The position numbers and the translations under genes were made by a program. Under the pieces are notes generated by a model that saw only the letters and a program-made list of their open reading frames with translations, was not told the DNA's origin and ran no database searches. A DNA stretch of 64,000 nt from assembly GCA_903813345.2 (NCBI GenBank), contig CAIIXF020000005.1:1552001-1616000 (forward strand). Direction: 5' to 3'. Position 1 is the first letter of the stretch, and every line of letters starts with the position of its first letter. The stretch is from Owenia fusiformis (taxonomy: Eukaryota > Annelida > Polychaeta > Sabellida > Oweniidae). Of the stretch, positions 2,754 to 60,735 are shown in pieces.

Positions 2754-3448
2754 AAGGGTGTTACAGATTCATCTTTTTTATTGCATTGAATAATGGGGTC
2801 ATCAGGTAAATATATTAATCATGCTTAGAAGGAGGTCTGGGTTAATCAGATATTCTAATTTTATTGGTTTATTTTCAGGAAACACTCATTGTTGGTAATT
2901 GAGGATTTCCATCAGTTTATCAGGCTTGGAAGTACATGTTGAATCAGGTTTACTCTGTCAATAGTTTAAGTGGCACAATAACAATACACATTTTACAAAT
3001 TGCTCTTTAAAATTGTTGCCTCTTTCCATGCAGTCTCTGTTTTACACAAAATTCCAAAATGGCCAGCTTATGTTTGAGTTGGCAGTAATTTGAAATTTCT
3101 TTAAAGTATGACGTTATTATACTAGAAGATAATAAAATAACTTATTTTTGAGTAGATCAGAATATTACTGTTTTATTTATCTTATTTATGACCCAAAAGG
3201 ATCACCTCATACGAAAATCTTCAAAAATTAAGACCTCTCTTATGTAAGACTATATTATACTATGACACATTTCGAGTTGCAATTTCTAGTTACGCTACTC
3301 TGTAAAATACATTTTATTCATGTAAATATAATGGAAACCTTTACCAGAACCAGTTATTAGATCAGCTGTGACCACCAGAGATACATGCTAAAGTACTGAA
3401 GCTTATCATAAAATATATAAGAACACATTACTTGTAATGAATAGGATT
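2754..3448. other. Non-coding flank of the retrotransposon
   Basis: AT-rich DNA between the MITE and the left end of the tyrosine-recombinase retrotransposon. No gene or repeat structure was seen. Confidence 0.4.
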
Positions 3449-3514
3449 GTACCCTTCCCAAAGTGACATATATACTTCGAACAGTACTTCACATTAAGGT
3501 TTGGGGCAAAATGT
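3449..3514 (-). repeat. Split direct repeat B2 (outer 3' end of the retrotransposon)
   Basis: 66 bp, beginning GTACCCTTCCCAAAGTGACA on the plus strand, identical by eye to 3733-3798. It marks the left boundary of the element. Confidence 0.85.
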
Positions 3515-3679
3515 TGTGTGAAGTACCGATCAGTTTAGATCACATCCATCTATTTCATATGCCCAAACATGGGTGGGTGGGCCGGGAAAATATGTCAATT
3601 ACTACTGTGAGTTAATCACCATATACAAACACTAACAACAACTCCACCATCGGGTACAAAGTCCCTTCCACGAACCCGT

Positions 3680-3732
3680 AAATTACTCGATACTGATTGT
3701 ACTTGGTTTTCATATAGATGTCACTGTGGATA
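3680..3732 (-). repeat. Split direct repeat A2
   Basis: 53 bp containing ATTACTCGATACTGATTGTA and ending TCACTGTGGATA, matching 10600-10652. It directly abuts B1 and is separated from B2 by 165 bp of unique sequence. Confidence 0.85.
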
Positions 3733-3798
3733 GTACCCTTCCCAAAGTGACATATATACTTCGAACAGTACTTCACATTAAGGTTTGGGGCAAAATGT
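3733..3798 (-). repeat. Split direct repeat B1
   Basis: 66 bp identical by eye to 3449-3514. The A2/B1 junction GTGGATA|GTACCC is the predicted circle junction of this element class. Confidence 0.85.
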
Positions 3799-4030: not shown

Positions 4031-5112
4031 TTATTGCTGAAACGCTGGCAGAGATGTAGTATGTTGCCTAAAAATATTTTCTGGCTCGTCATTATTTACA
4101 ACAGCTTTTGCCAACCTACTGGAAACACTCTCAGAATCTTTTAGCAATCCTGCCCGTGTATAATATTGTACGCTTTCATCTGTGAACCAACCTACGTGAC
4201 GCATCACCTCCGAGGAGGATGTTGCAGCCCCGGAAAGCACCATTGTTAACGCACATCCTGCCCTCAAGCTATGGGGGGTCTCCCCTTCATCCAAACCTAA
4301 CGTTGCTAGATAATATTTCAGACAATCATGAATAGCATTATACTTCAACGGTTCCTCCAATATTATACCTGAATTTGACATTGGCCGAAAAAGATACCCA
4401 ACTGATAAATCCACCCCTTCACTTTTCATAACTTGAACATAATCTTCTAATCCCTTTACCCGACACATAATTTTGTCCTCACATTTTCTCAAGACAAATG
4501 TGTTGCTCTTTCCTCCCCTCAATGTTTTACCAAAGCTTCGAGAAATACAGAATCCTGAACCATCGACCAATTTGGTTATTTCCTGAGATTTTAAATGGGA
4601 TAAATCCCCAGCCCTGTCACCCCCTAGAAACTGTAACTTGAAAAACGCCTGGTCTCTCAACAAAATGTATCTCAATTTATTGCTCAAATCTGAAAACTTG
4701 TAGCTCTCGATCAATGAATCCCATGATCTTCTAAATTTTTGACCTGAATATGGGTTTGGCTTGTTTAGGAATAACGTGACCTTTCCCCTGTTCCTCTTTC
4801 ATCATCTTTACATACTGTTTAACATCAGGTGACCTGGCAGGATTTCCATCACCGAGAGCACAATTCCAGGACTCCCCCCTCCCAATAAGGATGAATTCTC
4901 TAGCTAACTGATGTACCATACCCTCTAACGTCCCCGATGCTAATCGTGTAGGGCAACAACAATGTATATCTCCCTTGAGCTTTTTCCCCAAATATGCACA
5001 ACTTGGCTCATGAACTTTTGTCTTTCCAAACGAATCCTTCCACACCAAAAAACTCTTCACTTCATTTGGACCAGCATTATGAACCGATACCCAATACACT
5101 CCCAATACACTC
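4031..5112 (-). CDS. Tyrosine recombinase (integrase) of the retrotransposon, one frameshift
   Basis: This enzyme would integrate the double-stranded circular DNA intermediate by tyrosine-type strand exchange, in place of a DDE integrase. The N-terminal part (5105-4731) carries a core-binding region with RLASGTLEGMV, a GNPA motif and EEQGKGHVIPKQAKPIF, all typical of DIRS/Ngaro recombinases. The C-terminal part (4714-4031) has the catalytic set: Arg in GGDRAGDL (residue 34 of that segment), HSLR (148-151), HVGW (173) and the nucleophile in YYTRAG (184/185). The halves lie in different frames, and one surplus A in the AAAAA run near 4727-4731 accounts for the break. The start is unclear. An 11-bp tandem duplication lies at 5091-5112, a possible acceptor (CATTTCAG) lies just upstream, and an open stretch at about 5171-5265 beginning AWLDGKPIYL could be an earlier exon or leader. 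Confidence 0.85.
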
Positions 5113-5274
5113 CAAAAATGTCTGAAATGTTTTAAACAACTTTGTTGACTTCCTTATATATCCTTGTTCGGACGCATTTTTTCAATTTCCTTAATTCTAC
5201 CATCTATTATACTAAGATATATTGGTTTGCCATCTAACCATGCCTGAAAGCTTACAAGACAGGAAAACGTTTGT

Positions 5275-7480
5275 TCATGACATGGACACTCTGAATGCCC
5301 ACAAATTGAATTTCAAGCCATACTGATCTTTAATAAATCCCCTTTTACTTGGGTACAACAATGCCTCCTTTGAGCCGATTCCTGCCAAAAATATTTTAGA
5401 CACTGAATACGTATTTAATACTGGCCACCAGGGATCTAATGGACATCTCTCAGCCACAACAATAGTACATCTTTGAACCTTTCTCTCAACCAAATATCTT
5501 GTAACTGGAAGTACCATACAGAAAGGAGGAAAGACATAAGGATTAGTCTCAGTCTCTATCTTTTGACTGAATACATCTACCCCCGATGATTTTGGAAGCG
5601 GGGAGGGCGTAAAATGACGATCGACCAAACTATTGGAATCTAATGACATGAGATCTACTGAATGAGGCCCAAAATTGTGTTCAATTATTGCCCAAATTCC
5701 CGGCTGCAACATTGCATCCATGTTTGAGAGCCTTCTTGAAGGCATATCAGCGGGATTGTTTAATGTAGATATTCTGGACAGACTTGGATCAATATTCTTT
5801 TCAAGACAAACCATGAAAATAGATTTCAATATGTCATTCAATTCCAACGATTTACAGCCACCATTATTCCACGACTGGACTACTGACTGGTTATCCACCA
5901 TGATCCTGACTCTACAATTCTGCAATTCATTTGACAATGCATTCACACCGTTTAAAACAGCATGTGCTTCTTTAAGATGGATTGGACGGGAGTCGTCACC
6001 TTCCCAATAATCAGATATGACACCCTGATTTTCTTGTCCTGGAATTGAGTCCCCTAGAACCAGACCATACGCATATAGTGAAGAGTCTGAGGCAAGAACC
6101 AGATTTTTGTGACACTCTTTTCTCCAGGGAACATACCCTTCCAAAAACCTCCAATATTGAACTTCTCTCAACAAGTCATCAGACATTTCGACCAATTTAC
6201 TATTTCTCATTGCTTTAGAAAGTGAATTATTTGCTACTTTTGTGTACATCTTGGCTCCTGGGACTACCAGTATCATGGAGATGCATTTACCTACCCAGCG
6301 TTTTAGGACTTTGATCAACTTTTTCCTTTGATAGTATATAGGACATGAATTCCAAAAACTTCTCCTTCTTATCAGTTGGAAGATGAAAACACATCGACTT
6401 GGAATCGATCAAAAAACCAAGATATCTCAAACACGTTGTGGGCTGAAAATTACACTTTCGTATAGCTAACGTATAACCAAGATCTGACAATATCTTCAAA
6501 AAGGCATAGATTGTACATCTTTGCCTGAATTCAAACTCTTCTTCCACTTCACTAGGTTTCCTATTGACCACAAATAGCCGATCATCAATGTATTGCATTG
6601 TGCATATTTGGAGGGATCTCAAGTATGAGGTAACCACCATCCCGAGTGACTGATATACATACGGACTCAATTTCCAACCAAATGGAATAGTTCTATATAC
6701 CATGACCCACTCCCCAAACACAATCCCAAAATACATTTGAGAACTCTCAGACAGCAGGACATGATCATATCCACTTTTATCGTCACAGCTAAACAATACA
6801 GCACCACTATTGACCATTCTTGGCACCTCCCTAAGTGTTTCTAATGTAAAAGGTATGTCCCTCATCCATAAATTGATATAACGGTCATCGTGGCATAAAC
6901 GTGGTTTTGACGGTTCTACTAACAAAGGCATGACAACATGTGGCATTTGGCAATCCCCAAGTCTTCCCAGAAGTTTAATAGCACCCGTTTTTATTTTATC
7001 TTCCAATGTTTTAGCTATAAAATCCACAAACGGTATACAACTTTCAGCATTTCTAAAGAAATTTCTAGGGGGTGTATCACTATCATATGCTTTCCCCTTG
7101 AAAGAGCCCTTAAAGTGTACAAAGTATTCTGAAATGTCCACTCCATTACACAACCAGTCCATAATATTCGGATCATTCCCCTGATAATTTATTAAGAGTT
7201 TTTCCCATTCATTTCTAAACACTAAGCTGTGTAACATCCCTGCCACAAAATATTCAGGATCCCAAATAGGCAACTCACTATAATCAAACTGGCTGACATT
7301 GCCATCTATAACATTTTCTGCAGATGGTAAATGCTCACGAACTATGTGTGGAGAAATCCCATCATCATTCGAAAGTTTAGTTGATTCTGACGAATTTCTT
7401 ATATCCACTAAATCAGGATGGAAATTAGCCTCCAACTCCCATTGAGGTACAGATCCTCTGCTAAACGAACTTGAATCACT
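5275..7480 (-). CDS. Pol: reverse transcriptase and RNase H of the retrotransposon, one frameshift
   Basis: The RT part (to 6287) copies the element RNA. It has CDDKSGYDHV at about residue 217, IPFGWKLSPYVYQ, and the catalytic YIDD at about 282-285, counted from position 7435. The RNase H part (6318-5275) has the acidic set in LASDSS (D78), LKEAHA (E117), MVDNQS (D142) and NPADMPSR (D191). It is followed by the DIRS-group tail with VDLMSLDSN and NPYVFPPF. The two parts overlap in different frames. One surplus A in the run after TCAAAGG at about 6325-6330 explains the break and would restore a continuous RT-connection-RNase H reading. The frame stays open upstream to 7480, where a pyrimidine-rich tract ends in TTTCTTGTAG|AGTGAT, a good splice acceptor. 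No good ATG is present, so translation probably depends on an upstream exon. Confidence 0.88.
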
Positions 7481-8606
7481 CTACAAGAAATTAGTCAGAC
7501 ATCACTCACCCTCGAATGATAATGAAATTTCTACACACATAGTCCGCGTGAAATAATTTCACTAAGGATCAGTGTCCCATGGACTATACATGTAGTAACT
7601 TCAAGATATAACTATATACAACTAACAAAATACTGTATAAGTGGTAATTTTGCCTAATCATTTAATTTGCCTATTTCCTAATTTTTGCCAGGTTCGGAAA
7701 ATTAAATGTCAGAAATATTGTCTTTATAATGTTATCCAATGGGAGGTTTCTTGTCATTAGGAAAATTAAAATTAGGAAAATGATGAAATTTGACCATTCG
7801 GAAAATTAACCACTCGGATTAAATACCACTTATACAGTAAATGGTATGCCTTTAACAAATCAGTTGATCACAATCACAAAATTATCACTTTAATTACTCA
7901 ACACCATATAATATTATTTCTGAGGCTTTGCCCTTTTCATCGCCTCGCAAGTTCTAATAAGATGCCCTGAAATTCCGCAAAAATCGCATACTTTATTGTA
8001 ATTGTTGTAACTATTATTGAAACGACCAGTTCCCCTCCCCCTACCTCGTTGGCGAGGGAAATAATTTTGTTGGTATCCTGAAAGACCCATCCCAAACATA
8101 GGAAATTGCATTGGCCAGTTTTGCCCTTGCCCACCTTGCCAGATTTGTTGTCCACCTTGTTGAGAATTTTCCCCAATCTCAGACTTGGCTTTAGCCTCAG
8201 AAACTGGTTTTGATTTTTCACTTGCTTTTAAACACTTGGCCAAACTTTTCATTACTTTGTCACCCGAAGAAGACAAATTTGTGATTACAAAATTAGAGAT
8301 ATCCAATTTATCCGAGTATTTGGACGTATACTTTGATACCTCCTCAAAAAGATCATGGTCCTTATGCTTTGTCTTCTTTGCCAGTTCAGTTAGATCGTCC
8401 AATCTTGAAATCAATTCAGAGTTGTTAACTTCCTTCTGCATACACAATTTGCGGATCTTTTTTACCACATCGCTCACCTTCTTCTCTTTTTTCTCCTTCT
8501 CCTTGCCCTCCAATTCTTCTATCTTTCTCTTCAACGATGCTAGATCATTGTCTGCAGACGGTGGCGTCTCCATTCTTGACGTCTCGCTAGATCCCGCACG
8601 ACGTAC
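7481..8606 (-). other. Candidate intron for a Gag-Pol splice form
   Basis: Inside gag exon 3 the minus strand reads CTCCAG|GTACGT at 8607/8606, a near-perfect donor. The acceptor TTTCTTGTAG at 7481 opens the pol frame. Both sides are phase 0, so Gag residues up to RRLQ would join directly to SDSSSF and run into RT. This is inferred from splice consensus and phase only. Confidence 0.5.
7631..7839. mobile_element. Small MITE inside the retrotransposon
   Basis: A perfect 16-bp inverted repeat, TACTGTATAAGTGGTA on the left and TACCACTTATACAGTA on the right, encloses about 209 bp of non-coding DNA. Termini starting with TA suggest a TA target, as for Tc1/mariner-type MITEs. It sits between gag and pol, inside the proposed Gag-Pol intron, and interrupts no coding frame. 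Confidence 0.7.
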
Positions 8607-9537
8607 CTGGAGTCGCCTTTGTCTTTGCTGCCACCTGCAACACATTGAAAATTGAATTAACATAACCCCTCACAGCATCAACATATTTGAATAAGCATAT
8701 TACTATCTATATACTCACATTACTCATGTATGATGTTTTGAAACGTGTGCATGAGACACAAATTATCTCCCTTTGCCACTTATCATTCTAACAAAACTTC
8801 TAAACATTGTACAGCCTCTTAAATATTAAACGTAAACATACACATGTGACGTTCTTCGATCATGTTCATTTCAATTTCTATTCTCACTCACCGAGATCTT
8901 CTGTCCCTTGGGCTGACCTTTATCATTAGCCAATAACACCGCTATCTTAATAGCATTCTTCTGTTCCGCTTCCGTTGCTGTCGGTTTCCCCGCCATTGTC
9001 AACAGTTCACCCAACCCTGGCTCATCACAAAGATTATTCCAGTTTTCTACAAATAACAATAACTCCGTATCATTTAACGTAGACTACACCTTCAATGCAC
9101 AATAGTGACGTGTAAACGTTGTTGTCGACAACCAAATAAAATGAATACGAAAACAAAACATACGAGTCCAAATACACCATCATGCTACTGGCAGAACGCT
9201 CAAATCCAGCAACAAATCAAAACAACGTACAATTCCTCATGATAACATTTCAACTAACAAACATAATTTTTTCCGAAGAAATCTTTTCAGCTCATAATAA
9301 GTATGGAAGCGAGATACACCCGTACTCTAATATATCTCACTGTTATCCTTTATGTAATCAAGTAATCTTACCTTCCAACTGCGCCATTGTCATTGAGTCT
9401 ACGTCCACTCCGCCTTTCTTAAAGAATACCCTTTTTGGCAGTACTTCTGGTTCCACATCCCTCACCCTCTTTATTAAGATGCACAATAAATCCGCCCTAA
9501 TTCCGTGTCTGTCAAGGAGTACCGTATCCTTCGCCAT
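7914..9537 (-). CDS. Gag-like nucleic-acid-binding protein of the retrotransposon, three exons
   Basis: Proposed exons are 9537-9372, 9046-8892 and 8627-7914, giving about 344 residues. Exon 1 starts at an ATG (MAKDTVLLDRHG) and ends GGAAG|GTAAGA. Exon 2 follows TTTGTAG| and the split codon GAA restores the frame, reading MAQLEENWNN. It ends ATCTCG|GTGAGT, and exon 3 resumes after GGCAG| with QRQRRLQ. Both introns (325 and 264 bp) have consensus ends and all junctions stay in frame. The protein has an alanine/lysine-rich N-terminal region and a charged, probably coiled-coil segment (LKRKIEELEGKEKEKKEKK). A Gln/Gly-rich tract, an RGRGRGTGRF basic patch and a C-terminal zinc knuckle CDFCGISGHLIRTC (C-X2-C-X4-H-X4-C) follow. 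It would package element RNA. Splicing is predicted, and no transcript evidence is available. Confidence 0.8.
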
Positions 9538-9699
9538 TCTCTGCAAATATATTTCAAAGTTATGTTTTACCCGGGATTTCAACCTAAACATCACAATTCT
9601 ATTCTTCCATCGTGATGTCTAATAAACAAGTCGTATACATCTGCCAAATAAACTTTGTATTCAGGTTCCATGTATAAAATCTAAAAAATATCGAGAGAT

Positions 9700-10599
9700 A
9701 ACCAAGCAAACTTACCAATATCACAATCGATCTTGAGCTTTCCTACGTACGAAACAATGAAACTCATGTGTCAGTGTGCCAAACACGTGGCAGTCTCATT
9801 CATTGAATTTACTCACTCATGCCAATTACTATGAATACTCCCCTCCAACCAATGAGAGTCGTTTATTTTGTGTGCAATACTTACAATTCAATCAACCCGA
9901 TAAGTCCTTGAGATTTACACCACAATATTGACCTCGTATTATAACGCAAACAACCCATTCATGCGTGTAGATACCAAAATATTATGTCGTCCCAATCTAG
10001 CAAATTACGCACCCAAGAAACATTGCACGATCTCCAATTGCGTGCCATTATCATTGTTGCCTCAAAGCATAATAACTCTCTCTTCAGTTCCAAACATTGT
10101 GCCCTTATGCACCTATTTGCTATGTCCTTACCAAACTTCAAGCATAATCTACCCTCCCAAAGGATGGATGCCCTTATGCATCTCTTAGCTATGACCTTTC
10201 CATGATTCATGCTTCCCAAAAGCAATATCGCCCCCAAGGCATATATCTCTACACACTCCCAAAGCGTGTTCGACCTAGAATGCCCCTTATGGCCTCTAAA
10301 ATTCCATGCGTGCTTCCCAAAAGCAATATCGCCCCCAAGGCATATATCTCTACACACTCCCAAAGTGTGTTCAACCTAGAGTGCCCCTTATGGTCTCTAA
10401 AATTCCATGCATGCTTCCCAAAAGCAATATCGCCCCCAAGGCATATATTTCTACACACTCCCAAAGCGTGTTCGACCTAGAGTGCCCCTTATGGCCTCTA
10501 AAATTCCATGCATGTTTCCCAAAAGCACAGAGGGCCGTCATGCCCTCAAAATAAATTTTTACTCACCAAGCTGCCTGGAGTACGTCATTCACGTTCCAA
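9700..10599 (-). other. 5' leader of the retrotransposon
   Basis: This non-coding leader lies between repeat A1 and the first gag ATG. It holds the 101-bp tandem array at 10205-10527 and a weaker repeat of about 68 bp at 10100-10200 (words GTGCCCTTATGCAC and ATGCCCTTATGCAT). The promoter should lie here, but I could not identify it. Confidence 0.5.
10205..10527. repeat. 101-bp tandem repeat, about 3.2 copies
   Basis: The word GCTTCCCAAAAGCA recurs at 10211, 10312, 10413 and, as GTTTCCCAAAAGCA, at 10514, a constant 101-bp period. Copies differ by few substitutions. The open frames through it in several phases are products of the periodicity and not genes. It lies in the leader of the retrotransposon. 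Confidence 0.9.
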
Positions 10600-10652
10600 A
10601 AATTACTCGATACTGATTGTACTTGGTTTTCATATAGATGTCACTGTGGATA
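10600..10652 (-). repeat. Split direct repeat A1 (outer 5' end of the retrotransposon)
   Basis: 53 bp matching 3680-3732. It ends TCACTGTGGATA at 10652, which I take as the right boundary of the element. Confidence 0.85.
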
Positions 10653-10979
10653 AAATTTCATTTTAAATGAATTGCCTTTTCTATAATTCTCAATCATATT
10701 TATGTCTGACACCAATTCAAATATAAAGAAACTTAAAATCAGCAAAATAAGATTTGATGGGATTTGCTTCATATTGACACTGAATGTGGTTGATCAGTTG
10801 CAACGATGAAATGTCTCCAATCGTAATGCTCTTTCAATTATTTAATCATGATCTTCATTATCCAGATCAATTTGGGATTCCCAAAATGTTATTTCATTGC
10901 AAAGGTGAAATATTCAATATTTTCAGACAAAAAAGTTGTTCTTAGCTTAGCACTTTTTGGTATAAACAAAATTTTCACA
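10653..10979. other. Non-coding
   Basis: AT-rich sequence between the retrotransposon and the next MITE. No motif was recognised. Confidence 0.4.
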
Positions 10980-11470
10980 TACCGTATTATCTCTATTAAA
11001 TGCACACTCTCTAATAAACGCACACCCGACTTTTTGTCCCAGGCTAGAAAGTCCTGTCCAGATAATATTGAGATCTGATGAAGCTCTAATAAAAAAAACA
11101 TTGTGGGCGATAATAGAGTATTTTCACCGTTCGTTAAAATAATGCATCATGATTCATGACGTCACGATTTCCCATCATGCAACGTAAGAAATTTCTTCAG
11201 GTGTTCGTGTAAATAACACACAATAGTGTATTTATATGCTAAATTTGTCGTCTAGGAGCTCACAATTCAAGGTAAAAACATAACATATAGCATATTCTCT
11301 CTAATAAACGCACATATCTACTATAGGTATTTTTGGTATAGAAGTAAATTTTCACCCATTATCGCCCACCATCATAATGTTTTAGAATTCCCGGGGATTT
11401 AGCTGCTTGAAACCTCTCCCCCACGGGAATTTGCTAAGCGCACTGTGCATTTAATAGAGATAATACGGTA
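10980..11470. mobile_element. TACCGTATT-family MITE, copy 1 (intact)
   Basis: Inverted termini start TACCGTATTATCTCTATTAA and end with the complementary TTAATAGAGATAATACGGTA. A TA at each edge suggests a TA target. The internal repeat CTCTCTAATAAACGCACA occurs twice. There is no coding capacity. Two further copies lie at 17742-18203 and 48586-49359, so this is a multi-copy family within 40 kb. Confidence 0.85.
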
Positions 11471-11809
11471 TCATATCTTGATGACATTGGTAAGACTAAA
11501 ATAAGCCCAAGTGGTTTAAACTTTCCACTTTCCACTAGCATTTTGACAAAAATCATCAGTTCAGGCATTGAAATTTTAGTTGATTTATGCATGAACAAAT
11601 AACATTGAGTAATTCTCAAGATTATTTTAGGAAAATCTTCAGGAATTTAGAATTGAGTGGAGCTACAGTTTTTTGACTCACCCTGTATATTGATTAATGT
11701 TCTATCATGTGTTCAAGCCATTAATCTATAGATGATTTATTTATTTATTTTTGCAGAATTATCCTCTTTTTCAATGTTGCACATTCATGTCAACCACAAA
11801 TGATTCTTA

Positions 11810-19446: not shown

Positions 19447-21182
19447 GCTGCTAATTCATTTCAAATCTTCATTAGATGAGTGGAAAGACTGAAGAAAGGG
19501 TGACCAGAGAAGTTATATGTAACATAATTCCGTAGAAAATGAGACACCTTCCACTTACAATTGCTTTCAAGTACATCTCCAACTTACAAACTTCTGAGGC
19601 AAAGATATGTCATATGTGTTGAATAAAACCATCTAAAGATTTAGCTACATACCTCTGTATTTCTTTCACCCTATTTGGTGTGAATTTTAAATGCTCTTAA
19701 AATATGTGAATAAATAATTTGAAAATTGATAATTGCCTGTTCTATCCATGTTTATGATTTTTACTTCATATAACTTATATATAACTCACCAAATTCATTC
19801 AACTGATTCTACAACTACTCCTCTTGATTTATTCTGACTTAACAAAACTTAAAGGCTAAGAATTACTCAATGTTATTTTTGCTTGGATTGAGAAATTGAA
19901 AAAGCAAAGACGAATTAATGAGTCCTTGCTTAAGCGCTAGTTTGTTTAAGGAATAAAGAATGAATTATAGAGACCACGCATGGTTGAATAGTTGTATAAG
20001 CAAAGATTTGTGTCAGCAAGTAGCGTCATTTTGGTTGTACAATTACTGTATTCAAATATTTATACTCTGCAGTAATAATGTGATACTATTCTTGTTGAAA
20101 AATCACTTATCCCACAAGATTGGTGGCCATTGCAAGCTATTCTATACTTGTACTGTACAGGTCATGGATGGGCGGGAGCATCTCATTATTTCTTGTCTGC
20201 ACATTTCCAAATTGCCTTACTTGAATCTGTTCCTTTCATATGGGAACTTAAAACTGATTGGTTTTTGGGCATGTTGGGTTAATTTTAGGGAGCCAGTTAC
20301 GATTTTAAGGTACAATCTTGTTTATCTTCTGTCTTGTTGTCAATCCTATTGAAGAATTTATAACAAATGACTCAATCTATCATACACAGGATTTTTATGG
20401 CTGTATGACATATAATGATTGGTAGAATAGTGTTTGCCCATTTGCCCAATCCTTTAGAAGTGTTGAGTGCAAATTGTGGGTTTTTAAATTCTTCTTGAAA
20501 GATGTTCACATGCTGCTGCATATTTCAAAATAACATGGAATTTTTAAACTTTAAGTTCACATTTTTGACATTTTGTATTTTCAAAGGTTGGATTCATGTG
20601 TTAACCTTTTTAAAGAAATAGGTATTATTTTATAAGAATGAAACAAAGAGTCCTACTTGGTTTTACATCCCTTGAGAAAGTCCTTTTTTATTAAACATTG
20701 ACATTTTCAGTATGAACAATGACAATTTCTATCACAATAATTGTCCATTTAAAATACAAAGTGTTGACATCGCTCTGCATTTTCTTTTACTTAGATCTAT
20801 TTTTTAATTAATGAAATGAAATTGAAGAAAATGTTTGATTAAAGGTGCGCTATGGTTCATTGCTCTGTTGTATTATTAATCAGTCTCACAATGGATTAGT
20901 TTAACAGAATGTTCCATCCTCTGCTGTATGGTTTTTTATGTTATCATTTTATTATGCCATATTGAGGCACAGTTATTTTGTTAACTTTTTATTAAAACAC
21001 AACAAAATACAAAAGTTAAGGGCGTCCTTAGGCTGAAAACTAGCCTTAAGCCAATTTTATCCTCAGGGATTTTCTCCGGGAATTTTCTCCGGGAATTTCC
21101 CCTTGCTACAGAAATCCCGATTCTTAATATTGTAACATCTCACATTATGTGTTAAGTATATTTAAAAACTGACTTCCAATCA
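19447..21182. other. Non-coding
   Basis: AT-rich DNA. An open frame at 19960-20352 has no recognisable domain and ordinary non-coding composition, so I do not call it. Confidence 0.4.
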
Positions 21183-21192
21183 TTCTCCTTCT

Positions 21193-21732
21193 GTATGAAC
21201 CTGTATTGACCCGTATGAACCTGTATGGACCCGTATGAACCTGTATGGACCTGTATGAACCTGTATGAACCTGTATGGACCCGTATGAACCTGTATGGAC
21301 CCGTATGAACCTGTATGGACCTGTATGAACCTGTATGAACCTGAATGGACCTGTATGAACCTGTATGGACCCGTATGAACCTGTATGGACCTGTATGAAC
21401 CTGTATGAACCTGAATGGACCTGTATGAACCTGTATGGACCCGTATGAACCTGTATGAACCTGTATGGACCTGTATGAACCTGTATGAACATGAATGGAC
21501 CTGTATGAACCTGTATGGACCCGTATGAACCTGTATGGACCCGTATGGACCTGTATGAACCTGTATGGACCCATATGAACCTGTATGGACCTGTATGAAC
21601 CTGTATGAACCTGAATGGACCTGTATGAACCTGTATGGACCCGTATGAACCTGTATGGACCTGTATGAACCTGTATGAACCTGAATGGACCTGTATGAAC
21701 CTGTATGGAGCTGTATGAACCTGTATGAACTT
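21193..21732. repeat. 10-bp minisatellite, about 54 units
   Basis: An uninterrupted array of CTGTATGRAC in near-perfect 10-bp phase over 540 bp, with a higher-order alternation of GAAC and GGAC units and rare GAATGGAC variants. Because 10 is not a multiple of 3 and the minus strand of the unit has no stop in any phase, all three minus frames read through. The resulting V-H-T-G-S/P-Y-R-F-I-Q repeats are not evidence of a gene. Confidence 0.95.
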
Positions 21733-22014
21733 GACATTTACAGATATTTGTTGTTTAGTTGCAGCATCTGTTGTCTCATCCGCTATTAAAGTAAAGTATT
21801 TACTATTGACAATGTCATTGGAGATTTTGGACTTTATTTGATTTGCACATGTTGCAAAAATAAAAGGACAACTCTGTCATAAAACGAAAAAATTGACTCA
21901 TTCTCGGTTTTATCTCGGTGATCATGTACTTCTTATAATTTTACCAGTCAATATTTTAAATCTAAAGATTGACTTTTTTCAATACGTCTATTTCACATCA
22001 ACAGAATTCATCTA

Positions 22015-26261: not shown

Positions 26262-27491
26262 TCACATACTGGACGTTGTAGTAATTGGGCTCCCAGACTT
26301 TCCCTTAGGTTTTATACGTCCCTCTCCATTTGGCACAAGCTTAAATCCTTCATTCTTCAAACAGTTTGGTTTACTAGGACAACAAGCAGAGAACACCTCA
26401 ATGAATGTGGTCCTGAATTGTCTTGACATAGTGCAATAAAGCACAAAGTTGACAGAGTTATTGATAAGTGCTAGAATGTCAAAAACATCACCGAGAGGTG
26501 CATACACCATTTTGTAAAAGTTGGTAATGAATATGTTACAGACTGTAAGTATTCCATGTGGTAATTCTGTAATAAGGAACAATACAACCACAGCTAAGAG
26601 CATCTTTGTGGTACGATTGTTCTCGTGTGATCGGTCGGATTCATTTTTCTTGCCTTGAGACTTCAGTCTCATTCGCCGTTTGCTTGCCTCATTCATGGCA
26701 ACAATAAGTACAATGGTTAGTACAGTTAGCAGAATACATGGGATGATTTTGATGAACAATGCTTGGATCCAGTAGTTCAACCTTATCAAAATAGGTTGTG
26801 CTTTCGCTAAGTTGCTGTCGAGGATCGTCCAAATATTTTCATGGATTGTCACATTTGTACCATTAATCTCTTTCACTGATGTGTAGAACTTTGGTCCCAC
26901 ATTGGCTACAGCATTACAAAGAAAGTTTGGGACGCATATACATACAGTGATTATGTAAACTAGAGCGATACTTAGCTTTGCCCTCTGTAGAGAACATAAC
27001 GTCATGCCTCTTGTCGGGAAATAGATATACAAGAAGCGAAACGTTGCCAGAGTAATTGTCAGCCATATTGCTATTGTGTGGCATACAACTGTGTAGTTAA
27101 TATGGAAAAGGAAAAAATGTATCCAAGGAACACTGCGTGTATCAAAGAGTCCCAAGTCAGGTGGCTTCAGGATGTAGAAATGGACAGCAATGGGAAGATA
27201 TGATGTCATCGTCAGCAGATCAGCTACAGCTAACCACAGCAGGATTGTGTTTGTCGAAGAAATCATATTTTTTCGTGTCAGTACAATGATATTTGCGGAG
27301 TTGCAAATTAAGCCAAATATGCATACAGCAACACTTAAGTATCCGTGTACTGAACCATACGCTTCACCAAACTTTTTCAAACCAGATATTTCTGATGAAC
27401 CACCATCATTATTACTTGGCCCGGCTGTACTGTAATTGAGAATCACATCATATCCAGCTGTATAGTTCAAATTGTCAATCTCGTATGCCAT
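26262..27491 (-). CDS. Rhodopsin-class neuropeptide GPCR, DMSR/sex-peptide-receptor-like
   Basis: A 409-residue seven-transmembrane receptor, most likely a plasma-membrane receptor for a peptide of the myosuppressin/FMRFamide/MIP type. Approximate helices: TM1 48-71 (GLICNSANIIVL), TM2 80-105 (LLWLAVADLL), TM3 125-155, TM4 170-192, TM5 240-266, TM6 296-320 (KMLLAVVVLFLITELP) and TM7 333-353 (NNSVNFVLYC). The TM2 LAVADLL, the TM6 RTTKMLLAV...ITELPHGI and the TM7 tail MSRQFRTTF are typical of the SPR/DMSR (Srw-like) group. TM3 ends ATFRFLYI instead of DRY, as this group often varies there. N-terminal NYT and NYS and loop NGT and NVT are candidate glycosylation sites. C-terminal CC and C are possible palmitoylation sites. 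The ATG has a good context (CACAATGG). No intron interrupts the frame. Ligand and exact subfamily are not determinable here. Confidence 0.88.
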   Translation of the reverse strand: MAYEIDNLNYTAGYDVILNYSTAGPSNNDGGSSEISGLKKFGEAYGSVHGYLSVAVCIFGLICNSANIIVLTRKNMISSTNTILLWLAVADLLTMTSYLPIAVHFYILKPPDLGLFDTRSVPWIHFFLFHINYTVVCHTIAIWLTITLATFRFLYIYFPTRGMTLCSLQRAKLSIALVYIITVCICVPNFLCNAVANVGPKFYTSVKEINGTNVTIHENIWTILDSNLAKAQPILIRLNYWIQALFIKIIPCILLTVLTIVLIVAMNEASKRRMRLKSQGKKNESDRSHENNRTTKMLLAVVVLFLITELPHGILTVCNIFITNFYKMVYAPLGDVFDILALINNSVNFVLYCTMSRQFRTTFIEVFSACCPSKPNCLKNEGFKLVPNGEGRIKPKGKSGSPITTTSSM

Positions 27492-30400
27492 TGTGACTAA
27501 TTGTCTTGATGATGTATAATCAATAAATTACGTATTAATATCCTTAAATCTTTTTGTTTTTGTATGTTCACATCTAGTATATCATTTTTTCACTTGTCCT
27601 CCCTGGCCTTATGGTTAGCTTTTGTTTAAAATGCAGATGTACCAATTATATTTATGGATGATTTCAGGATAGCGTTGATCTGAAGTCACTTCCAATCAAG
27701 TCTGTTCATTCAATTTTAATCTGTGTATTGGAAAAGCTAATGATCTCTATGTTTCATGTAAATGCAATTTATTGGAGCATTGATCAGAAACACTATACAC
27801 AACACAAATATTGTTCACTGTTTCCACACCTGGCAATGAAACTTGAATTTTTCACATTGCTTCAATCCAAATAAATATCATGCGCCAATCAAATTGTTTC
27901 CAATATTCTTAATTATCAAACTATGATGCTGATTTTTCACCACTTTCATTTTTCAAAGCACTGAGGTAAACTTTGTTAACTCTTTCTGCAGTTTATTGCT
28001 CTTCTTGTGATGTTTACATATGTCTTGCTCATAAGTAGATTATACAGGATGTTGGTGGCATTTATATTATATTAATTTTTCAGTCAAGTCATAAGCTACT
28101 TAAATGGGTCTCAACCTTCCCTTCTTCGCCCTTTCTTCTATAAGACTTCTATGTATATTTCTGTATTGCCATCATAACACCCCAACTGTGATTCATCACT
28201 AATATACTATTATGTCTAGGAAAATACACATCATGTAGCTATTCATCAACACCTATGATATATTGATCTCTCTGGAACCAAAACTATACTGTGTCAGGAT
28301 AACATTGCCTGTTTTACGATAATGTATAGTTTTGTTGCTTCCCCTTGCCTCTAGTAATTGTCTTAATTGTTTAAATTGTCTGCGTCCATATCCCAGATCA
28401 TTTACGGAATCATTAGCATTAAAATATCATGTTTATAGCTGTTTTGTAGTGTTTATGTCAAAGTCTTCTCTCAAGGGTGAATTTAACCAAAATAGTGGAG
28501 CTTCAATCTCAGACAGCAGGCTCTATATCATTAAATTTTATGATAGATATTTCATAGAAGTTATGATATAGTTTCTCTGATCTTTAGATTTGTTTTTGAA
28601 ATTGGAACTTATTTTTAGATTAGTTTTGAGTATACCTTATAATGATTGCTAGCTTCTAATCTAATATAGTAGACTGTTGGTGGGTTGTATACTTGATTCC
28701 CTAGGGAAATATGGCCCTGGAGAGCTTCAGATCATAGTGCTGTTAATCGGAGATCCTAGCTTAAAAGGAAATCCTTTTTTCAGATTTCATCACAGAATAC
28801 GCCTTGTTACACAATCAATGTTCAGAGAGATCAAATTCGTTTTCCAGCCCAGTGGTTTTTTGCGTTGTCGATCAATGTTTTCTTGTTATCGGAGATTGTT
28901 CCATTTGTCTTTCAGTTTGTCATTTACATATTTAGTGTTCATCTTAATCCTTACTCATCTGTTCAGATTGTCCATACCGGAATCTTTATCTAAAAGGATG
29001 TGTAGGTGATATGTAATTCTCTTTTTCTTTGTTGTACATTTGTTGTTGAATCCTGCATGTCTGAAAATATAAACACATTTGGATTATATCATACATTTAA
29101 TAATTATCCTATAACAATGACACAGATATATTTTTCCCAGACAATTCTAGTACAGAAATGCAGTGAAGAAGATATTAGCTGATGTCGGATTTTAATGATA
29201 AAACCCATCATAAAAGATTTATTGCAACATTACATGGTTGTATACTCGAACACATGATTTATTAGAACCCTTTTTATGTACAAGAGGCATAAAAACATGA
29301 GGAAAAATATCAGCCAGACCCCTAAAAACCATAAGAAAACAGCCCAGAAAATTTGATTAAAAATAAGACATATAAAAGGTCATGATACTCTTAGTGAGGA
29401 ATATAAGGCACCATCTCCAGATGTTTTCCATTTTGGTGTACATAATTAGATTAGAATTAGAAAGCATTAAACTCATTAAGCACCCATGAATTTAGCCCCT
29501 CCTCAAGCATCTTTCAACTCTAGCAGGTGATCTGCCTTTAATTACCATCAGCACATCATCAAAATGTCTCTCTAACATAGAGTATTTAGAAATATCTTAG
29601 TTCATAATTATTATCAATCCTCGTGATAGATGAGTGTAGATCAAATATTGACCATACTGAGCTATCTAATATATAATTGCTGCAATGTTCTCATTTATCT
29701 TGTGAATTCCAATTGGTAATCCCTCTATTACTATTGTACTTCATTTTCCATGTGATATGTATTATGATTTACGTAATCAGACTAGATGCAATTAGCGAAA
29801 CTGAAGCACAAAAAAACATGAATCCCATTGTAACAGTTATTGATATTCTTTATGCAGTCTCCTTTGACTCAAAGGTAGGCACAAAGAAAAAATTGGTGCC
29901 AACAATTTAAAATGTTTTACCACTCATAGGATTGTTTACATTCTTCAAAGTCCCTTCCCTTAGAACTTCCAGAACTGCACTTGTAGTGACACTGCTCAAT
30001 TTATTATTAGTATTCTTCTTATTATTTGCATCTAACATATACATACATGTATATTCCCTTCCCTCATGTTTTTTTCATTTTGGATGGCCCTATTAATGAC
30101 TCTTCCATTCACTCTCTACTATATTATGTGCCACTTCTTATTTCCATTGTTTAGGAGTCACATTTGCTGTAAATTATTCCTGGAAGTCATTGCAATTGAC
30201 CCTGGATATATCATACTATGCTGATTTTTATGCACCCAGGCACTCAACACACATGCTTCATTGGTCCAATTTATCTCTGTGGAGGAATTAGTTTTTGTTA
30301 ATATTTGTTCCCATGGGCAATTATATCATCAGCTTATCGAGGCATTCATGTAAAGGTTATGAAAGTATCAAGGGTTTTATTCAGATTCCTCCCCTTAAAT

Positions 30401-59192: not shown

Positions 59193-60735
59193 CCAAATCT
59201 TGTAATTTGGAAATATCTGCACATCCATAGAGGATGTCGCAGAAATCAAAATGTGGTACGATAAAAGATTTGAACATAAGATTTAGATGGTTTCCACTAA
59301 GTTTTTTACTTAATGCTTTAAGTGGATTTAAAACTTATCAATTTTCTTTGCAAGATGGGTAATGTGGAAATTGAAAGATAATTTAGAGTCAAAGATAAAG
59401 CCAAGGTGTTTATGTGAAACACACCTAGGTATGGATTTGTTTATAGAATTTAGATCAGATTGGAAGGTGTTTATACATTCAGGCATATTATCATGGCTGA
59501 AGGGCTGATAAAGAGAAGTGTCATCTGCATACAGGAAACACTTGCTTAAAATGTCATCAGGTAAATCGTTTATGTAAACTAAAAATAGCAAAGGTCCTAA
59601 GATGGACCCCTGGGGAACCCCCGAATTGATATAGTCGCTGGCTGACCATGGAGATTCATGTCCGTCAATAAGCACTCTTAATTTTTCAATTGGTAAGATA
59701 AGATTCAATAAGTAGCATTATATTTGGACCAAAACCGTATGCATGTAGCTTCTTAAGTAAAAGCTTATGGGGTAAAGTATCGAAGGCGGCCGATATATCA
59801 AGAAAGACTGCACGAACATCATTACCATTATCCATATTAGAAGTTAAAAAATCAAGAATACTTAGTAGTTGGTGTTGTGTACTGTGACCTGGGAGAAATC
59901 CACTTTGAAAATTAAATAGAAGATTGTTTGTTAGCAAATGGTCAAACATCCTTTTAAAAATAACTCTCTCAGCTACCTTTGAAAGGCAGCTTAATTAAGT
60001 TATTGGACGGTAATTAGAAACAAGATTTTTGTCACTTTTTTTATGGCATGGGATAATATTCCCTAGTTTCCAGGAATTAGGAAATTTTCTCATTTCAAAC
60101 ATCTTATTGAGAAATTTTGAAAATAATTTTGATAAAGATGGAGCTGCTTACTTGAGCATTTTATTACTTAGTTTGTCAAGACCTAAAGCTTTGCTAACAT
60201 CGAGTGATATAAGAATTTCATAAATCTCTCTGTCATTTGTTGAAAGGATGTTTAAAAAAGAATCAGTTCTAAGGTCAAATTGAACACAGAAAATTCTACG
60301 GAAATATGGCAGTTCCTTCACTGTACCAATAAATGAAGTACAGACTAGAGTGCTGTGGTCAGTATTTCCGATTGGAGGTGTAACATTTGAAGAGGATATA
60401 AGATTTGGTTGATTAGCAATAAGAAGATCAATGCAGGATTGGCTTCTATTTGTGACACGAGTTGGTTGGTCAATTAACTGTGAAAGACCCAGACTTTGAA
60501 GATGGTTATTAAGCTCATTTCCAGTAAAGTTTTCATTGTCAGCGTCCCACCAAATTTTGTTGCGAGCATTAAAATCCCCATTAATGACAAGCAGGTCAGC
60601 ATTGGCATTAGTCAAAATGTTGGAGCAGGTATCATAAAATCTTTTAAAATATGCTTTAGACTGTTTAGAATCTTGGGAAGGGGAATGGTAAAAAACTCCA
60701 TATATAATGCTCAATAGTCTCTGAGATCTCTACAG

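What the first reader, a model, noticed from the sequence alone, without database searches (positions are those of the whole stretch)
7481..8606. In-phase alternative splice that could make a Gag-Pol fusion
A near-consensus donor CAG|GTACGT lies 21 nt into gag exon 3, and a strong acceptor lies just before the open pol frame, both phase 0. Pol has no convincing ATG. Using this donor would remove most of gag exon 3, including the zinc knuckle, and join the Gag N-terminal region to RT. That would be splicing in place of frameshifting as the Gag/Pol switch.
Basis: inference. Interest (0 to 1): 0.75.

Follow-up and report, generated by a model that had tools for sequence, protein, structure and literature searches.

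The report
Retrotransposon that may splice Gag to Pol
A jumping element in a eukaryotic genome appears to make its copying enzyme by splicing a shared starting piece onto different downstream pieces, instead of by the usual slip of the ribosome; the exact splice site first proposed is probably not the main one, and no RNA has been examined.

Summary
The described sites are real: donor CAG|GTACGT (8607|8606), acceptor TTGTAG|AGTGAT (7481|7480), both phase 0, and no ATG before pol residue 82. The element (minus strand) carries the ALOG recombinase domain of a known class of DIRS1-type retroposons. I compared it with relatives in the same genome, counted as seven families. In six, pol could be read: its open frame begins at, or 18-54 nt before, a phase-0 acceptor. 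In four of the five families sharing the first conserved pol motif no ATG precedes it; L023 has one, 9 nt before its acceptor. In three families the acceptor AG completes an in-frame TAG stop. A short Gag leader holds the start codon and ends near a phase-0 donor; the zinc-knuckle part follows a separate acceptor. L024, a young copy with identical repeats, shows the same layout. Phase agreement exceeds chance (P about 0.006; 0.02 under a stricter count). Splicing in place of frameshifting is thus fairly well supported for the clade. The finding's own donor is not: it lacks a counterpart in four other families measured. The likelier donor ends the leader (8892|8891), skipping the zinc-knuckle exon. 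Splicing as a Gag/Pol switch is known (Ogre); this layout looks new. No transcripts were available.

The parts
10600..10652 (.). A1, 5' copy of the A split direct repeat (53 nt, identical to A2)
9541..9715 (-). probable 5'UTR intron: donor ATATTG|GTAAGT 9716|9715, acceptor TTGCAG|AGAATG 9541|9540
   Evidence: sites located; inferred, no RNA
9372..9537 (-). Gag leader, coding exon 1 (ATG 9537-9535; ends phase 1, GGAAG|GTAAGA)
   Evidence: homologous exon in L023
8892..9046 (-). Gag leader exon 2; ends phase 0 at donor TCG|GTGAGT (8892|8891), the donor favoured here for the joins to gagC and pol
7914..8627 (-). Gag C-terminal exon (gagC) with zinc knuckle and stop
8606..8607 (-). the finding's donor CAG|GTACGT
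8607..8634 (-). alternative 28-nt micro-exon (TTGCAG|...|GTACGT) that would make the finding's donor part of a 55-nt gag intron (8606-8552)
   Evidence: inferred
8477..8478 (-). further phase-0 donor inside gagC, AAGAAG|GTGAGC, score 7.6
7629..7840 (.). dispersed ~212-nt repeat with complementary ends inserted between gagC and pol; absent from 3 near copies
7480..7481 (-). pol splice acceptor TTGTAG|AGTGAT; its AG completes an in-frame TAG stop
6287..7480 (-). pol, reverse transcriptase part; frame broken near its 3' end in this copy
5275..6408 (-). pol continued in another frame (RNase H-like by eye; no Pfam match)
5243..5244 (-). candidate phase-0 acceptor CTTTCAG|GCATGG before the recombinase
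4031..5153 (-). ALOG-domain tyrosine recombinase, broken (ORFs 5153-4731 and 4798-4031)
3728..3798 (.). B1 split direct repeat
3680..3732 (.). A2 split direct repeat
3444..3514 (.). B2 split direct repeat, 3' end of element

Best explanation
This is a damaged copy of an ALOG-domain DIRS1-type retrotransposon whose proteins are made by alternative splicing. A short Gag leader carrying the start codon (exons 9537-9372 and 9046-8892) ends at a phase-0 donor (8892|8891). Joined to the zinc-knuckle exon (8627-7914) it makes Gag. Joined past that exon to the pol acceptor (7481|7480) it makes a leader-Pol protein. A phase-0 acceptor before the recombinase (5244|5243) suggests the same for that protein. 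Shown: the layout, the phases, the missing pol start codon here and in three other families, and recurrence of the layout. Inferred: that the joins occur, and that their ratio sets the Gag/Pol balance.
For: (1) The motif [VIL]P[DEQ]WE near the pol start is found in 5 families (window, L021, L022, L023, L026); in 4 of the 5 no in-frame ATG lies between the upstream stop and the motif. The next ATG is residue 82 after the acceptor in the window and 182 in L021. (2) In 6 of 6 families with readable pol a phase-0 acceptor at or above the 90th percentile of AG sites lies there; in window, L022 and L026 its AG completes an in-frame TAG. (3) A phase-0 donor ends the leader in window, L023, L024 and L044 as the best-scoring GT, and in L022 and L027 as second best. 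(4) In 22 open intervals (pol 6, gagC 6, recombinase 3, leader 7) the best-scoring site is phase 0 in 14. With the null measured on random intervals of the window (acceptor 0.359, donor 0.332) P=0.0058; acceptors alone 10 of 15, P=0.015. (5) gagC has no ATG up to residue 71 in L024 and in L044, and its first 67 residues are under purifying selection between them (dN 0.18, dS saturated). (6) L024 has identical terminal repeats (65/65 and 66/66), so its layout is unlikely to be decay. (7) Of 8 other loci with related RT in this genome, 6 have gag and pol overlapping in different frames, 1 has RT in the same open frame as gag, and 1 has an ATG as second codon of pol.
Against: No RNA and no related species. 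L023 has an in-frame ATG 9 nt before its acceptor, and L027 has one further up, so pol could start there. In L024 an ATG at residue 36 precedes most of the similarity to other families. gagC has in-frame ATGs before its conserved part in 4 of 6 families (window, L021, L022, L023). Several sites are weak: L022 leader donor CAG|GTACCC scores 1.6; window gagC acceptor is at the 78.7th percentile; in window and L021 the top-scoring pol AG is out of phase by a small margin, and so is the top gagC AG in window, L023 and L024. Pol alone (4 of 6) is P=0.10, leader alone (4 of 7) P=0.17. A TAG stop at the interval boundary itself supplies a phase-0 AG; without the two intervals won by it, 12 of 20 gives P=0.019. 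L021 has lost its leader donor. Between window and its 3 near copies the pol segment before the first ATG shows no purifying selection (dN/dS 1.07-1.21, few changes). The window copy is broken in pol and recombinase.
Confidence: 0.55

Rival explanations
1. One reading: the leader enters a 21-nt mini-exon (8627-8607) and its donor 8607|8606 is joined to the pol acceptor 7480.
For: Strong donor, 99.8th percentile; phase 0 and in frame; kept in 3 of 3 near copies.
Against: Needs the weak acceptor 8628|8627; a better acceptor 7 nt upstream is out of phase. None of the 4 other families measured (L021, L022, L023, L024) has a donor scoring 2.5 or more in the first 45 nt of gagC; L022 has one of 3.2 at 48 nt. 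Near copies are too close for their conservation to count.
Confidence: 0.12
2. The donor 8607|8606 serves a short intron inside gag: a 28-nt micro-exon (8634-8607), a 55-nt intron (8606-8552), then gagC from 8551, all in frame. It has nothing to do with pol, which is still joined from the leader. Compatible with the best explanation.
For: Uses the two best acceptors of the interval (97.7th and 93.5th percentiles) and is in frame; the resulting gagC start lies about as far from the conserved LKRK as in L021.
Against: Micro-exon and intron are unusually short; no RNA; one near copy (L007) has a change in the CTGCAG acceptor.
Confidence: 0.12
3. Pol is joined from another donor inside gagC, such as 8478|8477 in the window.
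For: Score 7.6, phase 0; L023 has a phase-0 donor scoring 6.8 in the same region. Donors scoring 6 or more in phase 0 occur 3 times in 3.1 kb of gagC (5 families) and 0 times in 24.7 kb of the other frames counted.
Against: Positions are not homologous between families, and Lys/Glu-Val codon pairs can produce such sites (inference); the near copies have a deletion at this site.
Confidence: 0.08
4. Pol is entered without the Gag leader: its own start codon in some families, a separate first exon with an ATG, spliced-leader trans-splicing, or a non-AUG start.
For: L023 and L027 have in-frame ATGs before the pol motif; any donor ending in phase 0 would fit the acceptors; the recombinase frame has an early Met shared by L024 and L044.
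Against: The window, L021, L022 and L026 have no such ATG. The leader ends in a phase-0 donor that needs a partner. The host, and any trans-splicing in it, were not determined.
Confidence: 0.14
5. Chance and decay: the sites mean nothing and missing ATGs reflect damaged copies.
For: The window and its 3 near copies are damaged; the phase excess is modest under the stricter count, P=0.019.
Against: Same layout in diverged families and in L024, whose repeats are identical and whose frames are open.
Confidence: 0.06

Closest known systems
ALOG-domain DIRS1-type retroposons (Iyer and Aravind 2012, PMC3537659; passages read)
   Same: Recombinase with ALOG domain, Gag with zinc knuckle, RT; reported from several marine animals and Ectocarpus.
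   Different: The words 'splic' and 'intron' do not occur in that text, and metazoan copies are described as inactivated by stop codons and fragmentation. Here part of the fragmentation is read as exons.
Ogre LTR retrotransposons (passage in PMC6317226; the experimental papers it cites were not read)
   Same: Splicing of a subset of transcripts joins the upstream ORF to the RT ORF: a splicing-based Gag/Pol switch.
   Different: In Ogre the region between two whole ORFs is the intron, so Gag-protease is kept. Here the zinc-knuckle exon would be skipped.
copia and BARE (PMC3735527; passages read)
   Same: Alternative splicing sets the Gag/Pol balance.
   Different: There one ORF encodes both, and splicing makes a Gag-only RNA. 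Here splicing would be needed for both.
Foamy virus Pol (PMC8003144; passages read)
   Different: Foamy Pol is made independently of Gag. Here pol of the window has no ATG and would carry a Gag-leader N-terminus.
MLV P50 / SD' RNA (PMC10496198; passages read)
   Same: A spliced RNA whose protein carries Gag-derived and integrase parts.
   Different: An accessory product; MLV still makes Gag-Pol by translation (recalled).

Membership tests
ALOG-domain DIRS1-type retroposon | ALOG domain at the N-terminus of the tyrosine recombinase | tested here: met
   Window ORF 4731-5153: PF04852 E=1.5e-15; 10 ALOG loci found in the genome
ALOG-domain DIRS1-type retroposon | tyrosine recombinase catalytic domain | tested here: met
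   Window ORF 4031-4798: PF00589 E=3.6e-8
ALOG-domain DIRS1-type retroposon | reverse transcriptase | tested here: met
   PF00078 E=1.1e-11
ALOG-domain DIRS1-type retroposon | RNase H and inactive adenine methylase | tested here: inconclusive
   No Pfam match for ORF 5275-6408; methylase-like stretch noted by eye only, from recall
ALOG-domain DIRS1-type retroposon | Gag with zinc knuckle | tested here: met
   L024 gagC PF00098 E=1.2e-4, above cut-off; in the window only E=0.0087, below cut-off
ALOG-domain DIRS1-type retroposon | direct terminal repeats | tested here: met
   Split direct repeats A1/A2 53 nt and B1/B2 71 nt; same arrangement in L024 and L031
Classical frameshift Gag-Pol | pol frame overlaps gag in another frame | tested here: not met
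   Gap from gag stop to pol acceptor 433 nt in window (about 220 without the insert), 198 in L021, 289 in L022, 90 in L024
Ogre-type splicing switch | intron lies between two whole ORFs so that full Gag is fused to Pol | tested here: inconclusive
   No donor scoring 2.5 or more was found near the gagC end in window, L021, L022, L024; L023 has one of 3.9, phase 1, at its stop; RNA is needed
Foamy-virus-type spliced pol | pol has its own start codon | tested here: not met
   No ATG between upstream stop and first pol motif in window, L021, L022, L026; L023 (and L027) do have one
Alternative splicing of the element | spliced transcripts exist | not testable with these tools
   No transcriptome is held

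The most novel reading that the evidence does not exclude
One Gag leader with the shared start codon is spliced alternatively to three in-phase downstream exons (zinc-knuckle Gag, Pol, ALOG recombinase), so that all three proteins share an N-terminal domain that could bring them into one particle. The exon order can change, as in L024 and L044, where the recombinase comes first, without breaking expression.
Probability: 0.4. Interest if true: 0.72.

Novelty: new variant of a known kind. Interest (0 to 1): 0.5.

Why it matters
If true, a clade of retrotransposons has replaced the ribosomal frameshift by nuclear splicing of a shared leader. That would help explain why animal ALOG elements look fragmented, and it predicts that some copies taken for dead are read as exons. 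It also raises a testable question: how unspliced RNA escapes splicing to be copied.

Tried and rejected
One search showed otherwise (L023, L027, gagC of four families), and a measured null raised P from 0.0035 to 0.0058. I lowered the best explanation from 0.60 to 0.55 and the three-exon reading from 0.42 to 0.40, and raised the rival without leader from 0.10 to 0.14 and chance from 0.05 to 0.06. The 8 control loci were first called recombinase families; that was untested. In one search only 3 of the 8 (L037, L039, L040) have a listed recombinase match within about 3 kb downstream; the list is incomplete.

Junction copies: I looked for genomic copies made from spliced RNA, with leader and pol adjacent. 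Leader DNA of L022 found only its 3 known copies, and that of L024 only itself and L044. The window interval found 3 near copies besides 36 matches to the insertion repeat. No junction copy was seen; leaders of L021 and L023 were not searched as DNA.

Cross-species search: RT alignment A1 against viral contigs and genome contigs gave no relative. Host identity by COX1 gave no match, so host and trans-splicing remain unknown.

The near-copy 442-nt deletion (8310-7869), which removes the zinc knuckle, was considered as a trace of splicing and rejected because its ends are not GT...AG (by eye).

dN/dS between the window and its near copies gave no support.

One search used wrong coordinates: the L022 leader was meant and the gag-pol gap was searched. 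Its answer was kept as the observation on L025.

Literature: nine searches listed no paper whose title or abstract start concerns splicing in DIRS or ALOG elements. In PMC3266345 'intron' and 'splic' occur 0 times. Passages of PMC3212892 and PMC5890265 (12 of 16 and 12 of 24 places shown) said nothing on it. Of the other listed papers I opened only those named under Closest known systems. Most subscription papers are not held, so this is not proof of absence.

Rows dropped before counts: L025, L027 and L031 are near copies and not counted as families; L027 was used beside L021 in the leader intervals, so the 22 hold 2 of one family. Of L026 only pol was readable; L043, fetched to look upstream of it, was only listed for ORFs. 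L042 was left out of the interval count. Recombinase intervals of window (broken frame) and L021 (no clear start) were left out. The two leader exon 1 donors (both phase 1, inside the leader) were not part of the 22. L035 and L036 among the controls are near copies.

Full report
What is there. The finding lies inside a retrotransposon on the minus strand of the window, from about 10652 (A1 repeat) to 3444 (B2 repeat). Its repeats have the split direct arrangement A1 ... B1-A2 ... B2. In sense order it has a Gag leader in two exons, a zinc-knuckle Gag exon (gagC), pol with reverse transcriptase (PF00078, E=1.1e-11), and a tyrosine recombinase with an ALOG domain (PF04852, E=1.5e-15; PF00589, E=3.6e-8). 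The ALOG domain places it with the DIRS1-type retroposons of Iyer and Aravind (PMC3537659, passages read). The genome is 498 Mb in 525 contigs and unnamed. The window copy is damaged: its pol and recombinase frames are broken.

The observation. Donor CTCCAG|GTACGT (8607|8606) and acceptor CTTGTAG|AGTGAT (7481|7480) are as described and both phase 0. The donor is at the 99.8th percentile of 6710 GT sites and the acceptor at the 90.2th of 6538 AG sites. The first pol ATG is residue 82 (7237) and reads AGG in 3 of 3 near copies. The frame before the acceptor ends in TAG, whose AG is the acceptor's own.

A nested insertion. Window 7629-7840 is a short dispersed repeat: of 46 matches listed for the interval (731 first-look candidates, 40 scored) 36 are 94-100% matches to this part. 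The 3 near copies lack it. They share a 442-nt deletion of the zinc-knuckle part and several smaller lesions in gag.

Other families. RT searches and an ALOG search (10 loci) led to relatives at about 36-52% RT identity: L021 and its near copy L027, L022 and its near copies L025 and L031, L023, L026, and L024 with the decayed relative L042. A leader search found L044, a sister of L024 at about 68% DNA identity. With the window's own family this makes seven, counting L044 apart. The pol frame is open for 754 residues in L021, 711 in L022 and 899 in L024; that of L024 ends in a GDSL-like hydrolase stretch (PF13472 E=8.7e-6, below cut-off).

The pol start. In six families pol could be read. Each has a phase-0 acceptor: window TTGTAG|AGT, L021 TTGCAG|GAA, L022 AATAG|GAT, L023 TTACAG|GGA, L026 TATAG|GAT, L024 TTTCAG|GAC. 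The open frame begins at the acceptor in window, L022 and L026, where its AG completes an in-frame TAG, and 18-54 nt before it in L024, L023 and L021. Five families share the motif [VIL]P[DEQ]WE near the start. In window, L021, L022 and L026 no ATG lies between the upstream stop and the motif; the next ATG is residue 82, 182, 32 and 18 after the acceptor. L023 has an in-frame ATG 9 nt before its acceptor, and L027 has one further up where its frame is longer. In L024 the first ATG is residue 36, ahead of most of the similarity to other families; L042 does not keep it.

Gag is split. The leader carries the start codon and ends at a phase-0 donor: window TCG|GTGAGT, L023 AAG|GTAAGC, L024 and L044 CAG|GTCAGT, each the best GT of its interval; L022 CAG|GTACCC (weak) and L027 ATC|GTGAGT, each second best to an out-of-phase GT; in L021 it is lost. 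The zinc-knuckle exon follows its own acceptor. In L024 and L044 it has no ATG up to residue 71, and its first 67 residues are under purifying selection between them. In window, L021, L022 and L023 in-frame ATGs do precede its conserved part. The L024-L044 DNA match ends near the leader donor and resumes near the recombinase acceptor.

Statistics. In each of 22 open intervals I took the best-scoring site regardless of phase. It is phase 0 in 14 (pol 4 of 6, gagC 3 of 6, recombinase 3 of 3, leader 4 of 7). Against one third P=0.0035. A null from 4000 random intervals each in window 10700-64000 gave 0.359 for acceptors and 0.332 for donors, and P=0.0058; acceptors alone P=0.015, donors alone P=0.17. 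Leaving out the two intervals won by an AG inside a TAG stop, 12 of 20 gives P=0.019. The window itself is a weak case: its best gagC and pol AGs are out of phase.

A young copy. L024 has identical repeats (A 65/65, B 66/66), so its layout is unlikely to be decay. Its order is leader, recombinase, gagC, pol. L042 has recombinase, gagC, pol, and L044 has leader, recombinase, gagC. In L024 all three exons after the leader have phase-0 acceptors, though before gagC an out-of-phase AG scores higher.

Contrast in the same genome. I fetched 8 other loci with related RT (L034-L041; L035 and L036 are near copies). In 6 the stop-to-stop gag and RT frames overlap in different frames (182-392 nt in L037-L041, longer in L036). 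In L035 the RT lies in the same open frame as gag. In L034 pol has an ATG as its second codon, about 78 nt after gag. A recombinase match is listed near 3 of the 8. Splice sites were not examined in these.

Which donor. A second phase-0 donor (8478|8477, score 7.6) is at least as good. Another use of 8607|8606 is a 55-nt gag intron after a 28-nt micro-exon, in frame and using the two best acceptors of the interval. The donor that recurs is the one ending the leader, so the most likely join is 8892 to 7480. Against this, donors scoring 6 or more in phase 0 are over-represented in gagC (3 in 3.1 kb against 0 in 24.7 kb of other frames counted), so an internal donor cannot be excluded.

Known relatives in mechanism. 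Ogre elements splice an intron between Gag-protease and RT in a subset of transcripts (PMC6317226, passage). copia and BARE splice to make Gag-only RNA (PMC3735527, passages). Foamy virus makes Pol from a spliced RNA (PMC8003144, passages). MLV makes P50 from a spliced RNA (PMC10496198, passages). The present layout would combine these in a new way: a shared leader, a skipped zinc-knuckle exon, and perhaps a third alternative exon for the recombinase.

Limits. There is no RNA and no other species (searches found none), and the splice matrices are recalled. dN/dS between window and its near copies in the pre-ATG pol segment is about 1.

Noticed in passing
window 7629-7840: Short dispersed repeat with complementary ends, 36 listed matches at 94-100% in the genome, inserted between gag and pol.
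   Followed up: partly
L024, L044, L042: Sub-clade with the recombinase ahead of the zinc-knuckle Gag and pol, unlike the window's order.
   Followed up: partly
L032:3-989: Pol of L024 ends in a GDSL/SGNH-like hydrolase stretch (PF13472 E=8.7e-6, below cut-off).
   Followed up: partly
L002-L007 (C11 twice, C1 once): Three near copies share the same set of gag lesions, so a gag-defective form was multiplied by transposition in trans or by duplication; flanks not compared.
   Followed up: no
L025: About 1 kb inserted between gagC and pol of this L022-family copy, the same gap as the window's insertion.
   Followed up: no
window 3444-3798 and 10600-10652: Terminal repeats are nearly identical (53/53, 99% over 71) although the coding frames are broken: a recent insertion of a defective copy, or assembly indels.
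   Followed up: no
window 10205-10527: About three 101-nt tandem units just inside the element's 5' end.
   Followed up: no
window 10979-11471: Perfect 28-nt inverted repeat with 437 nt between the arms, perhaps another small transposon.
   Followed up: no
window 21145-21876: Repetitive stretch open in several frames, coding for HTGSYRSIQV-like units.
   Followed up: no
window 26262-27527: 421-residue open frame that looks like a peptide G-protein-coupled receptor (by eye).
   Followed up: no
window 60148-60729: Looks like a fragment of a non-LTR retrotransposon (by eye).
   Followed up: no
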